From contig NZ_CP017659.1 of the NCBI RefSeq assembly GCF_015326965.1, positions 4,034,501 to 4,098,500 on the forward strand: 64,000 nt of DNA. Reading direction: 5' to 3'. This document shows positions 25,025 to 59,746 of this stretch, in pieces. The notes below the pieces were generated by a model. The model had not been told where the DNA came from. It saw only the letters and a list, made by a program, of their open reading frames with translations, and did not search any database. The position numbers and the translations under genes are program-made. Each line of letters begins with the position of its first letter. Within the stretch, counting starts at the first letter, position 1. The DNA is from Paenibacillus sp. JZ16. Lineage in GTDB: Bacteria > Bacillota > Bacilli > Paenibacillales > Paenibacillaceae.

Positions 25025-25285
25025 AAAAAAGCTCCGTCCCCTGTAGGGACGGAGCCTTGTCTCCGCGTTACCACCCTGATTCGCACCGGACAAGCCGATA
25101 CGCACTCTCGTCATCATCCATCAATGATGCCCCATGATAACGGCAGGGAATACCCGGATACGCCTCAAGTTATAAACGATCGACGGATCTGCTCCGAGGT
25201 GATGGCCATGCATCGCCGCTGACTGCTTCGCACCACCCAGCAGTTCTCTGGCTCAGCTTCCATTTGCGATCCTGGCGTCCTCATC
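25025..25285 (-). ncRNA. T-box leader, probable isoleucine specifier, upstream of a GNAT gene
   Basis: On the minus strand the canonical T-box sequence AGGGTGGTAACGCGGAG lies at 25077-25061, followed by the terminator GCTCCGTCCC-TACA-GGGACGGAGC and TTTTTT (25055-25025). Upstream, Stem I shows the base helix GGATC/GATCC, an AGAGA bulge and the apical GGTGCGAAGCAG region. The specifier position, aligned with the trpS T-box in this same window, reads ATC (25203-25201) followed by ACC, i.e. isoleucine. T-box identity is sure; the specifier assignment is by hand alignment. Confidence 0.88.
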
Positions 25286-25377
25286 CTAGCATGTTCGAAA
25301 ATTTAACTCAGTTTACTCCCGGCGGCATCCAGCTGTCAAGCCGATTTCACCTATAAAGAAAGGCTGGAGACTCCATC

Positions 25378-26236: not shown

Positions 26237-27163
26237 TTACTCCGTCAAACCCAAGGCATTCCGCGCCATCGTCATATACTCTTCCTGACCTGTCAGGAGA
26301 GCGAACTGGGCGATCAGCACGGGATACGCGGCATGCTGTTCGACAATATGATCGAACATGCGCGGCCATATCTTCCCTCCGGCTTGTTCATACCGGTCCA
26401 ACAGGACACGGAGATTATGCTCGCCATAAATAGCGTAGTATAACACGAAGTCTTTGGCGGGACTTGCTACCTCGGACTCCGTCCAATCCAAAAGTCCGGT
26501 CACCTGCACGCGCTCATCAATCAGGATATGCGGGGGGTGAAGATCGCCATGGATGAGGGCAGAATGCGTTGGCCAATAGGAATCCTCCTCCAGCCATTTT
26601 TGCCACCTCTCCCACAGCGCATCGGAAACACCCAGACGGCTCTTGATGTCTTCCATATTTCGCGCCGTCTCATCACGAACCTCTTGGGGACTCTTTACCT
26701 GCAGACCTGCTGCTCGGGCTGCATCGTGATCGACGCCATGCAAGGCAACCAGCGCCTCAGCCAGTGAGCGGATAAACCCCTCGCCCGGATTCTCATGATC
26801 CATATTCCATGCATATCCTTCCATGCTGACGGAAGCGGCAGGCTCCCCGCTTAGCAGCGGGTAGGCAATGAGTTCCGGCGTGTAAATCCGCCAATCCGGT
26901 ACATCAACCGGAAGATGGGATTGAATCAGCTTCAGGACTCGAGCTTCGTTATCTGCTCTATCCAGCACATCCGATCGTCTCGGTTTACGCAGAATCCACC
27001 GTGCTCCAGTCCCTGCTTCCTCTGCGAATCCAACAAGGAAATCCATGCCGGATTCATTCATCTCTATTCCCTCCGGAATCAAATTTACCCCGTGTTTTCC
27101 GGCAATCTCCAGCATCTCTTGGATCACTTGTGTATAATCATCATTTGGTTTTGCTATTGTCAT
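26237..27163 (-). CDS. Macrolide 2'-phosphotransferase (Mph family)
   Basis: Kinase that should inactivate 14- to 16-membered macrolides by phosphorylating the desosamine or mycaminose 2'-hydroxyl. 308 residues with AAGGGG before the ATG. The kinase motifs are HGDLHPPHILID (catalytic Asp 207; Mph enzymes carry His where other APH proteins have Asn) and GLLDWTESE (Mg-binding Asp 226). The N-terminal ATP site includes GARWILRKPRR. The overall pattern is that of Mph(B)/Mph(C), not aminoglycoside kinases. It is preceded by a roughly 360-base leader with a short peptide ORF and two terminator hairpins, which points to drug-induced attenuation. Confidence 0.9.
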   Translation of the reverse strand: MTIAKPNDDYTQVIQEMLEIAGKHGVNLIPEGIEMNESGMDFLVGFAEEAGTGARWILRKPRRSDVLDRADNEARVLKLIQSHLPVDVPDWRIYTPELIAYPLLSGEPAASVSMEGYAWNMDHENPGEGFIRSLAEALVALHGVDHDAARAAGLQVKSPQEVRDETARNMEDIKSRLGVSDALWERWQKWLEEDSYWPTHSALIHGDLHPPHILIDERVQVTGLLDWTESEVASPAKDFVLYYAIYGEHNLRVLLDRYEQAGGKIWPRMFDHIVEQHAAYPVLIAQFALLTGQEEYMTMARNALGLTE

Positions 27164-27214
27164 AAGGAATCAATCCCCTTCCATTTTTCATTGCATCAAG
27201 GCCGTCATTACAAC

Positions 27215-27281
27215 AAAAAAGCACAGGCAACGAGCTGCCTGTGCTGGGTAACCGGAACGGGTCTTAGCTGTCCACCGTTCC
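27215..27281 (-). promoter_or_regulatory. Second attenuator of the mph leader: hairpin plus rho-independent terminator
   Basis: On the minus strand GGAACGG-14 bases-CCGTTCC (27281-27254) is followed by GCACAGGCA / TGCCTGTGC and TTTTTTG (27244-27215). The terminator ends only 52 bases before the mph start codon, so readthrough is needed for expression. This fits a conditional terminator. Confidence 0.7.
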
Positions 27282-27394
27282 TGGAATGCCTACTCGAAAT
27301 ACACATTCAAATAAAACAGGAAGGTGAGAACACCGTTATCCCGCAAATGAAAAAACGTGTACTTCTATAGACATATCATAAAAATGGGTTACGT

Positions 27395-27445
27395 AAAAAA
27401 GACGGACCCATCCCGATTACCCTGCATCTGTGCAGGTCTCTTTAG
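27395..27445 (-). promoter_or_regulatory. First attenuator of the mph leader
   Basis: On the minus strand AAAGAGACC, a CCTGCA-CAGA-TGCAGG hairpin and AATCGGG are followed by GGTCCGTCTTTTTT. CCCGATT inside the leader-peptide ORF is complementary to AATCGGG here, and GGGTTACGT at the leader ribosome site is complementary to ACGTAACCC just after the T-run. Alternative pairings that depend on ribosome position are therefore possible. Confidence 0.6.
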
Positions 27446-27455
27446 CGCTATATCA

Positions 27456-27494
27456 TTAGCCGCGAAAAGATCTCAATCGGGAATAATCCAACAT
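27456..27494 (-). CDS. Macrolide-type leader peptide MLDYSRLRSFRG
   Basis: A 12-codon ORF whose ATG (27494) lies 7 bases after a strong GGAGGG. The peptide reads MLDYSRLRSFRG and contains Arg-Leu-Arg at residues 6-8. The Arg/Lys-X-Arg/Lys pattern is the known sequence at which macrolide-bound ribosomes stall (for example MRLR in ErmDL). The ORF sits within the leader of a macrolide phosphotransferase gene and its codons 5-7 pair with the downstream terminator region. It is too short for standard gene calling. Confidence 0.75.
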   Translation of the reverse strand: MLDYSRLRSFRG

Positions 27495-27528
27495 ACGTAA
27501 CCCTCCGTTCGTTTATAAGTTGTGTATA

Positions 27529-27557
27529 ACTTTACCAAAGTCATTCGTAGTTTGCAA
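27529..27557 (-). promoter_or_regulatory. SigA-type promoter of the mph leader
   Basis: TTGCAA (27557-27552), 17-base spacer, TAAAGT (27534-27529) on the minus strand. Predicted start is near 27522, about 28 bases before the leader-peptide ATG. Confidence 0.6.
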
Positions 27558-27670: not shown

Positions 27671-27961
27671 TTACGCTTCCTGCAAATACTCTTTGCAAAA
27701 AGTCATGAGTTCTTCCTCTTCCTCGGGCTCCATATCGAAGTCCAGGTACTGGTCGGTTGTCCGCTCATAGAAGTCGTATTTTACAATGCGCGAAGACTCC
27801 TCGTCTTCCAGATAAATCACTCTCAGATAGACGCCATGCTCCGAATAGAGCTCGTCGTCCTCCGGCACGTCCAAATCGCATACAAACTCAAAGCGTTTGC
27901 CTGCCAGGATTCCAAAAGGATCCTTCACCAGTTCAACGCTATATTCTTTGATTGTCAGCAT
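27671..27961 (-). CDS. Small acidic conserved protein (DUF6509-like)
   Basis: 96-residue cytoplasmic protein; ATG 27961 has AAAGGATGGG upstream. It is strongly acidic, with a C-terminal run of Glu (DMEPEEEEELMTFCKEYL) and the pattern LTIKEYSVELVKDPFGILAGKRFEF. I recall similar short Bacillus/Paenibacillus proteins grouped as DUF6509, but function is unknown and the family name is from memory. It is monocistronic, divergent from the repeat-protein gene at 28162. Confidence 0.75.
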   Translation of the reverse strand: MLTIKEYSVELVKDPFGILAGKRFEFVCDLDVPEDDELYSEHGVYLRVIYLEDEESSRIVKYDFYERTTDQYLDFDMEPEEEEELMTFCKEYLQEA

Positions 27962-28161
27962 ATTCCCATCCTTTCTATCACTCTGATTATTATACACAAC
28001 AGTGAGTGTCTTCTTACACTCTTTCTATTCGCAAAATGGTTGCCTATCAGCACTCAGGGCCCTTCCCCCATTTTCTATTCTATCAGCGCATACCTCTTAC
28101 GAGCTGCATCGAATTCACTTACGATAAAATAAGACTCCATTGAAAAGAGGAGATGAAGCGC

Positions 28162-59189: not shown

Positions 59190-59454
59190 TAAAACCTCCC
59201 TTCATGGTGTCTCTATCCCTTAAGTGCCGATCTGAACGAAAAAGGTTACCTCTCTTCAGGAATTCTGCACCGGATGGATGATATATCGAAAATTCTCCAT
59301 CGCCTTCGCCGGCGCCTCCCAGGCCCGATTCAGACCACCCGATTCCTCTTGACATTCACTTAACACCTGTGTGATGATACTCTTCAAATCATCTTGTTCT
59401 CTCTTTACATCCGAAAAGAGCTGCGCAGATGAATTTAAGAACAACATACCACAC

Positions 59455-59746
59455 GGCTATGAGAAGAAATAGTAGCTTATCTCTTGAGGTCCAAGCGAAC
59501 CGGCGAATGGTGCGAGGCCCGGTACCCCGGAATGAGTGAATGGATCTTCTCGCTTCAACCCGAACCTTTCGGCTGTGCCGGAGCAGTAGGCCTTGACGGC
59601 TCTCCACCGTTACTTTGGGAGATATGGCAGGAATAATAATGGTGTTTTTCCCCATTTCCACGTCATGCTAAAGAGCGACAGTATAGTCGAATTCGGGTGG
59701 TACCGCGGAGTTACACTTCGTCCCATAGAGGGATGAGGTGTTTTTG
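59455..59746 (+). ncRNA. T-box leader, tryptophan specifier, upstream of trpS
   Basis: Stem I begins near 59460 (GAGAAG pairing with CTTCTC), with GGCGAATGGTGCGAGGCCC as the apical part and the specifier in GAA-TGG-ATC (59541-59543), i.e. tryptophan. The T-box sequence GGGTGGTACCGCGG lies at 59695-59708 and a terminator with TTTTT tail at 59713-59745. Uncharged tRNA-Trp should permit readthrough into trpS. The stretch 59190-59454 shows no convincing gene. Confidence 0.95.

What the first reader, a model, noticed from the sequence alone, without database searches (positions are those of the whole stretch)
27215..27557. Macrolide-sensing attenuator candidate upstream of an mph gene, with an RLR leader peptide
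The 12-codon ORF (MLDYSRLRSFRG) has a near-ideal ribosome site, sits 28 bases after a predicted promoter and carries the +X+ motif (Arg-Leu-Arg) at which macrolide-bound ribosomes stall. Its codons can pair with the first of two terminator-like hairpins ahead of a macrolide phosphotransferase gene. Leader-peptide control is well known for erm genes; a long two-terminator leader for a chromosomal mph in this group looks new to me.
Basis: partly seen in the sequence, partly recalled or inferred. Interest (0 to 1): 0.85.

Follow-up and report, generated by a model that had tools for sequence, protein, structure and literature searches.

The report
Shared macrolide-sensing leader before resistance genes
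In a Paenibacillus chromosome, a gene predicted to inactivate macrolide antibiotics is preceded by a leader RNA with a tiny Arg-Leu-Arg peptide gene that likely works as a drug-triggered transcription switch, and homologous leaders occur in hundreds of related genomes, where most of those examined precede other gene families linked to drug resistance.

Summary
The gene (26237-27163, -) is an MphI orthologue (94% identity to P. lautus MphI). Of 73 Paenibacillaceae mph upstreams, 60 have an SD-preceded ORF of at most 16 codons with Arg-X-Arg (52 RLR; in 48 the first Arg is residue 6, as in ErmDL), against 12 of 2920 shuffles. Three helices covary: P1 (leader SD with a strand about 108 nt on), P2 (Ser-Arg-Leu codons with AATCGGG) and an antiterminator in which P2's downstream strand pairs beside and into the terminator's 5' arm; in permutations, swapped partners never reached the mean of own partners (0 of 20000 each). 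Best reading: a ribosome-mediated transcription attenuator of the ermK/hflXr kind, new for mph in what I could search. A covariance model of the mph leader hits 286 of 394 family genomes and others beyond; of 88 copies read, 82 precede hflX, erm, macrolide esterase, mph or an SDR of unknown role, with gene-specific leader peptides. No expression data exist here; equilibrium folding does not make the window's own antiterminator displace its terminator.

The parts
27529..27557 (-). weak promoter candidate TTGCAA-17-TAAAGT
   Evidence: read; 8 of 12 consensus bases; not listed; similar hexamers seen by eye in L007 and L008
27456..27494 (-). leader ORF MLDYSRLRSFRG, RLR at residues 6-8 (27479-27471), SD GGAGG 27506-27502
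27494..27503 (-). P1 5' strand GGGTTACGTA (pairs with 27395-27386)
   Evidence: own partners better than all 20000 permutations
27474..27482 (-). P2 5' strand in the Ser-Arg-Leu codons (pairs with 27419-27411)
27421..27436 (-).
   Evidence: no terminator support (z -1.15)
27405..27422 (-). switch strand E (GGGTAATCGGGATGGGTC): holds the P2 3' strand, or forms the antiterminator 5' strand; TGC 27426-27424 can extend the antiterminator
27386..27395 (-). P1 3' strand TACGTAACCC
27246..27263 (-). antiterminator 3' strand GACCCGTTCCGGTTACCC, abutting the terminator 5' arm
27212..27245 (-). intrinsic terminator (stem 27245-27220, then T-run)
26237..27163 (-). mph gene, MphI orthologue (308 aa)

Best explanation
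The leader ahead of this MphI-type gene is likely a macrolide-responsive, ribosome-mediated transcription attenuator: a 12-codon ORF with Arg-Leu-Arg sits inside a hairpin (P1/P2) whose distal strand can instead pair with the sequence beside and within the 5' arm of the terminator before mph, so a ribosome predicted to stall at Leu7/Arg8 would free that strand and let transcription continue into mph. Shown by sequence: the ORF, the hairpin, the terminator, the alternative pairing, and their conservation and covariation. Inferred: without drug the ribosome leaves, P1/P2 holds the switch strand and the terminator forms; with drug the ribosome stalls with Leu7 in the P site (by analogy with ErmDL) and covers the P2 5' strand. 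Shown by search: the same element stands before hflX, erm, macrolide-esterase, SDR and a few transporter genes in other genomes, with gene-specific leader peptides; that the peptide swaps change the inducer is inferred.
For: RxR ORF in 60 of 73 mph upstreams versus 12 of 2920 shuffles; 52 of the 60 are RLR, synonymous codons vary, 48 have the first Arg at residue 6. Own versus permuted partners, 0 of 20000 permutations as good for P1 (n=19), P2 (n=14) and antiterminator (n=19), and again in pooled non-mph copies (n=38, 25, 29). In truncated transcripts (terminator 3' arm not yet made) the terminator 5' arm is paired to the switch strand (>0.3) in 55 of 58 leaders with a ribosome mask at RLR, 29 of 58 free, 22 of 58 with a control mask; for the window 0.78, 0.03, 0.03. 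Element in 286 of 394 family genomes at E<=0.01; mph in 71 of 394 at E<=1e-55. Of 88 copies read, 82 precede hflX 40, erm 16, esterase 12, mph 9 or SDR 5. Precedents with experiments: hflXr/rli80 (PMC6310831), ErmDL stall at RLR (PMC8298421), tlrB RYR (PMC6851288); passages seen.
Against: No expression, stalling or term-seq data. At folding equilibrium with the whole terminator present, the ribosome mask at RLR lowers terminator probability by >0.3 in 31 of 58 leaders (control mask 0 of 58) but not in the window's own clade (window 1.00 free and masked), so there the switch would have to be kinetic. A mask over the leader start codon lowers it about as often (30 of 58, counted from the printed table; means 0.95 free, 0.47 stalled, 0.94 control, 0.49 start mask), so the model does not single out the RLR position. 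29 of 58 leaders sequester the terminator arm even unmasked. 13 of 73 mph loci lack the RxR ORF; five of those keep the RNA element with altered peptides (RLS in L025, a frameshift in L032, 3-codon ORFs in L067 and L076, a deletion in L019). Within single gene classes the permutation test is weaker: hflX P2 275, erm P1 1397, esterase (n=6) 6205, 684 and 940 of 20000 as good as own; SDR had too few copies. Related sequences are not independent.
Confidence: 0.8

Rival explanations
1. Translation attenuation as in ermC: the stalled ribosome would open a hairpin that hides the mph ribosome site, with no role for termination.
For: Some other mph leaders look like this: short RxR ORFs (MCIHFMRLR, MCTHYMRLR, MLFRGIASVRLR) lie 106-174 nt before the gene, and in L035 and L078 C-rich stretches face the mph SD (by eye).
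Against: In the window a strong conserved terminator lies between the leader and mph and the covarying alternative partner of the switch strand abuts the terminator. Sequestration of the window's mph SD was not tested.
Confidence: 0.08
2. Classic amino-acid attenuation: the ORF senses Arg-tRNA or Leu-tRNA shortage.
For: Arg and Leu codons lie in the P2 strand.
Against: Most genes behind the element are resistance or ribosome-rescue genes, the residue between the two Arg varies (L, W, V, I, F), and leader peptides differ by gene.
Confidence: 0.03
3. A riboswitch or protein-bound RNA that binds drug or a regulator directly; the ORF is incidental.
For: Strong conserved RNA structure; conserved TCGGGAT and TGCC segments; five mph leaders keep the RNA but not the RxR peptide.
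Against: Peptide-level conservation of RxR with synonymous codon change; by analogy, hflXr induction in Listeria is lost when ErmC makes ribosomes insensitive (PMC6310831, passages).
Confidence: 0.05
4. Two-terminator leader as first read, with the 27444-27394 hairpin as a second terminator.
For: Six T follow it in the window; 6 of 28 aligned leaders have five or more T there.
Against: Not in the scan, z -1.15, no such T-run in 22 of 28 aligned leaders.
Confidence: 0.04

Closest known systems
hflXr / rli80 attenuator of Listeria monocytogenes (PMC6310831, passages seen)
   Same: 14-aa ORF with RLR, terminator, antiterminator and anti-antiterminator regions, lincomycin- and erythromycin-induced readthrough; hflX is the commonest gene behind the copies read here (40 of 88).
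   Different: Different target (mph here); whether rli80 belongs to the same RNA family was not tested.
uORFC-6-1 motif (PMC8632094, passages seen)
   Same: Bacillales, Arg-Leu-Arg uORF, primarily before hflX, 51 representatives.
   Different: Structure described as wholly downstream of the start codon; here P1 starts at the SD. The paper's main text has no occurrence of 'phosphotransferase' or the word 'erm'. Seven of my loci gave no Rfam 15 match in the leader.
ermK attenuator of Bacillus (PMC5418344, passages seen)
   Same: Leader ORF, intrinsic terminator, antiterminator favoured by a drug-stalled ribosome.
   Different: Controls a methylase; sequence relation not tested.
ErmDL leader peptide (PMC8298421, passages seen)
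   Same: RLR at residues 6-8, stall with Leu7 in P and Arg8 in A site.
   Different: Rest of the peptide and the target gene.
tlrB (yxjB) leader of B. subtilis (PMC6851288, passages seen)
   Same: C-terminal RYR stall motif, transcription and translation attenuation combined.
   Different: Responds to tylosin, not erythromycin, and needs NusG pausing; target a methylase.
MphI of Paenibacillus sp. LC231 (PMC5155152, PMC5760710, passages seen)
   Same: Window protein is 94% identical to P. lautus MphI.
   Different: 'leader peptide' and 'inducible' do not occur in the main text of the first paper, 'attenuat' not in the second.

Membership tests
Macrolide-inducible ribosome-mediated transcription attenuator (ermK/hflXr kind) | Short ORF with SD and a +X+ stall motif | tested here: met
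Macrolide-inducible ribosome-mediated transcription attenuator (ermK/hflXr kind) | Intrinsic terminator between leader and gene | tested here: met
Macrolide-inducible ribosome-mediated transcription attenuator (ermK/hflXr kind) | Alternative antiterminator and anti-antiterminator pairings | tested here: met
   covariation
Macrolide-inducible ribosome-mediated transcription attenuator (ermK/hflXr kind) | Antiterminator excludes the terminator | tested here: inconclusive
   31 of 58 leaders at equilibrium, not the window's; a start-codon mask does the same in 30 of 58; window only in truncated transcript
Macrolide-inducible ribosome-mediated transcription attenuator (ermK/hflXr kind) | Drug-dependent stall and readthrough | not testable with these tools
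   needs toeprint and reporter
uORFC-6-1 motif | RNA structure wholly downstream of the uORF start codon | tested here: not met
   P1 5' strand starts at the SD
uORFC-6-1 motif | Upstream of hflX | tested here: not met
   window copy precedes mph; 40 of 88 copies read precede hflX
MphI | Close sequence identity to named MphI | tested here: met
   94% identity over 100% of the query
MphI | Substrate range (telithromycin, tylosin, spiramycin; not cladinose macrolides) | not testable with these tools
   from PMC5155152 for LC231 MphI (passages)
ermC-type translation attenuation | Resistance gene SD sequestered in default fold | not tested
   -

The most novel reading that the evidence does not exclude
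One homologous attenuator RNA is a plug-in drug sensor for a whole macrolide-resistance regulon in Bacilli: the same P1/P2/antiterminator chassis stands before mph, hflX, erm, macrolide esterases, transporter-like genes and an unrecognised SDR, while the leader peptide is exchanged (RLR, RVR, SR-stop, MLN-stop, FFPVSL) to tune which drug is sensed. It would make the SDR a new resistance enzyme and would match the RLR sensor to MphI's cladinose-free substrates.
Probability: 0.45. Interest if true: 0.8.

Novelty: new variant of a known kind. Interest (0 to 1): 0.64.

Why it matters
A single leader RNA family with interchangeable peptides could let one read, from sequence alone, which chromosomal genes a bacterium turns on against macrolides, and would flag resistance genes that have not been recognised (the SDR). 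It also gives a natural series of leader peptides in a constant RNA context, in which the rule linking peptide motif to inducing drug can be tested: MphI acts on telithromycin and tylosin but not on cladinose macrolides (PMC5155152), and telithromycin is the drug whose arrest on ErmDL needs the RLR motif more than erythromycin's does (PMC8298421).

Tried and rejected
First 'terminator' (27444-27394): rejected. RNAalifold on alignment A1 recovered only P2, since MAFFT misaligns the P1 3' strand and the antiterminator partner lies outside A1; I used own-versus-permuted duplex tests instead. The first version of that test missed eight rows (six window-clade rows, L009 and L018) and was replaced, where L018 still has no terminator match and L019 was left out. 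Equilibrium folding was expected to show the switch in the window and did not. Rfam gave nothing in the leader, for the window at gathering score or for seven loci at E 0.1. The window leader has no match on 72,556 plasmid records at E 0.01; plasmid Mph proteins are all below 60% identity. Outside the family, 28 of the 250 class genomes have mph, at 29 places; I examined the 20 that came as loci, and the RxR rule holds in 8 of 20; one more of them (G516) has MLDHFSRLRTLRH farther upstream. In one search, 36 of 88 copies were dropped because the pattern for the switch strand or terminator did not match. The 88 copies were picked from the hit lists for score and spread, not at random. A sequence link with Listeria rli80 or ermK was not tested. 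Literature: searches; no paper among those listed is one I recognised as describing this for mph, but the lists were capped (20 of 81, 15 of 143, 15 of 113) and most subscription papers are not held.

Full report
What is there. On the minus strand the window carries a 308-aa Mph-family gene (26237-27163; NCBIfam MphC and MphB models at 301 and 290 bits, below their narrow cut-offs; PDB 5igu, Macrolide 2'-phosphotransferase II, E 8e-79). The best named homologue is MphI of P. lautus, 94% identical. The window's genome is one 7.4 Mb contig; named relatives with the locus include P. lautus, P. solani, P. lactis and P. assamensis. The leader ORF MLDYSRLRSFRG is at 27494-27456 with GGAGG ending 7 nt before the start codon.

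Conservation. I took the 71 family genomes with an Mph match at E<=1e-55 (of 394 searched), plus two further loci (L018, and L019, whose Mph match covers only residues 1-41); L016 and L017 duplicate two of the 71 and were dropped. Of these 73 upstreams, 60 contain, within 450 nt, an SD-preceded ORF of at most 16 codons with Arg-X-Arg; dinucleotide shuffles give 12 of 2920. The motif is RLR in 52, RWR 4, RFR 2, RVR 1, RIR 1; the first Arg is residue 6 in 48 of 60. Codons vary synonymously (CGA, CGG, CGC, CGT; TTG, TTA, CTA, CTC; AGA, CGT). Many leaders stop directly after RLR (MQNFSRLR, MANFIRLR), which fits a stall before the second Arg is added, as reported for ErmDL (PMC8298421, passages). 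59 of the 73 match the leader pattern of the window (61 rows less two duplicates); 54 of these have RxR, five do not. Six more loci have RxR in unrelated leaders closer to the gene (for example MCTHYMRLR); eight have neither.

RNA anatomy. P1 pairs the leader SD region (GGGTTACGTA) with TACGTAACCC 108 nt on; P2 pairs the Ser-Arg-Leu codons with the strand around AATCGGG; P3 is a small hairpin between them. P2's downstream strand can instead pair with a conserved segment (window GACCCGTTCCGGTTACCC; in many others TCGATTAC followed by CTGCAC) that abuts and often runs into the terminator 5' arm. Examples of co-change: L025 TCTCGATTA with TAATCGAGA; L011 GTAACCCGGGA with TCCCGGATTGC; L073 ATATCGG with CCGGTAT. 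The mean duplex energy of own partners beat all 20000 permutations of partners among dissimilar loci for P1 (n=19), P2 (n=14) and the antiterminator (n=19). The representatives share ancestry, so this is not a strict probability. The window's P1-P2 hairpin folds at -50.2 kcal/mol, z -5.75.

Mechanism. With a 32-nt ribosome mask at RLR, and the transcript cut before the terminator 3' arm, the terminator 5' arm pairs with the switch strand in 55 of 58 leaders (29 of 58 unmasked, 22 of 58 with a mask elsewhere); in the window 0.78 against 0.03 and 0.03. With the full terminator present, the mask at RLR lowers terminator probability by >0.3 in 31 of 58 and a control mask in 0 of 58, but a mask at the start codon does so in about 30 of 58, and the window's clade does not respond. 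There the antiterminator and terminator can coexist side by side, so the proposed switch needs the antiterminator to form first. L004, whose SD region reads GGAGGATTACG, already shows 0.76 unmasked, as do many others; the folding numbers are indicative only, and the main support is conservation and covariation.

The wider family. A covariance model from 28 mph leaders (A1, R1) hits the own genome twice: this locus (2.8e-21) and G000:C1:608227-608366 (3.9e-5), the latter before a macrolide-esterase gene whose frame is split into 150 and 147 aa. It hits 286 of 394 family genomes, 86 of 100 genus genomes and 53 of 250 genomes drawn from the class, 36 of them outside the family, several of these weakly. 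I read 88 copies: hflX 40, erm 16, esterase 12, mph 9 (some fragmented), SDR 5, others 6. HflX, Erm, esterase (L090) and SDR examples pass an NCBIfam cut-off. The six others are three MFS transporters (best NCBIfam names Mef(A), Tet(A)/(B)/(C) and Lmr(B), each below its cut-off; the third passes the EmrB model), a protein with a sub-threshold condensation-domain match, a protein without family match that looks like a lipoprotein by eye, and a contig end. In L225 (Mef-like) the match covers only model positions 29-134 and no leader ORF was found. In 44 pooled non-mph copies (36 of 88 dropped) the three pairings again beat 20000 permutations. Per class: hflX 0, 275 and 1 of 20000 as good as own for P1, P2 and antiterminator; erm 1397, 4 and 0; esterase (n=6) 6205, 684 and 940; pooling profits from differences between classes.

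Leader peptides differ by gene (heuristic start choice, counted from its output): R/K-X-R in 38 of 40 hflX copies (mostly MIDFIRVR...), 11 of 16 erm (mostly MVDQFIRVR...), 7 of 9 mph, 0 of 12 esterase (MLN-stop or MAN-stop in 6, a LIFFPVSL type in 5, NFSRLSKHCK in one) and 0 of 5 SDR (MIDxSR-stop in all five).

Known or new. Attenuators with leader ORFs are known for ermK, with RLR for hflXr (PMC5418344, PMC6310831, passages), and a uORF motif with RLR mainly before hflX is described (PMC8632094, passages). In the MphI papers the leader and attenuation terms I looked for gave nothing on mphI. The esterase paper (PMC12704417) has no occurrence of leader, attenuat or regulat in its main text. 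Among the papers listed I recognised none that ties these genes to one RNA family. I therefore call the mph leader a new variant of a known kind, and the shared family the more surprising result. MphI phosphorylates telithromycin, tylosin and spiramycin but not cladinose macrolides (PMC5155152, passages), and the RLR motif matters more for telithromycin than for erythromycin arrest (PMC8298421, passages); a matched sensor is a testable guess, not a result.

Noticed in passing
G000:C1:608227-608366 (own genome, outside the window; L114): Second copy of the element before an alpha/beta-fold macrolide esterase gene; leader is MLN-stop; the esterase frame is split into two ORFs of 150 and 147 aa.
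   Followed up: partly
L128, L131, L141, L224, L226: The element precedes an SDR oxidoreductase (PRK08263-like) with leader MIDxSR-stop in 5 of 5 copies: candidate unrecognised drug-resistance enzyme.
   Followed up: partly
L132, L134, L143, L144, L148, L204: At least six of the 15 erm loci read have two leader elements in series (L204 by the model, the others by eye).
   Followed up: partly
L067, L076, L032, L025, L019: mph leaders that keep the RNA but have a 3-codon ORF, a frameshift, RLS or a deletion: natural tests of whether the peptide is needed.
   Followed up: no
L247, L248, L245: Leaders before fragmented mph frames (G182, G232) or with no mph hit in the 5 kb read (G233).
   Followed up: no
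L035, L072, L074, L077, L078: Unrelated short RxR leaders 106-174 nt before mph; in L035 and L078 a C-rich segment faces the mph SD, as in translation attenuators (by eye).
   Followed up: no
L244 (G309): The best-scoring copy in the family (E 2.3e-27) stands before a 355-aa protein with a sub-threshold condensation-domain match.
   Followed up: no
window 59450-59728 (+): T-box leader (Rfam RF00230, 95.8 bits).
   Followed up: no
window about 25042-25296 (-) (L001 303-557): Sub-threshold T-box match (81.5 bits, gathering score 93) near a GNAT gene.
   Followed up: no
window 27671-27997 (-): DUF6509 gene directly upstream of the leader.
   Followed up: no
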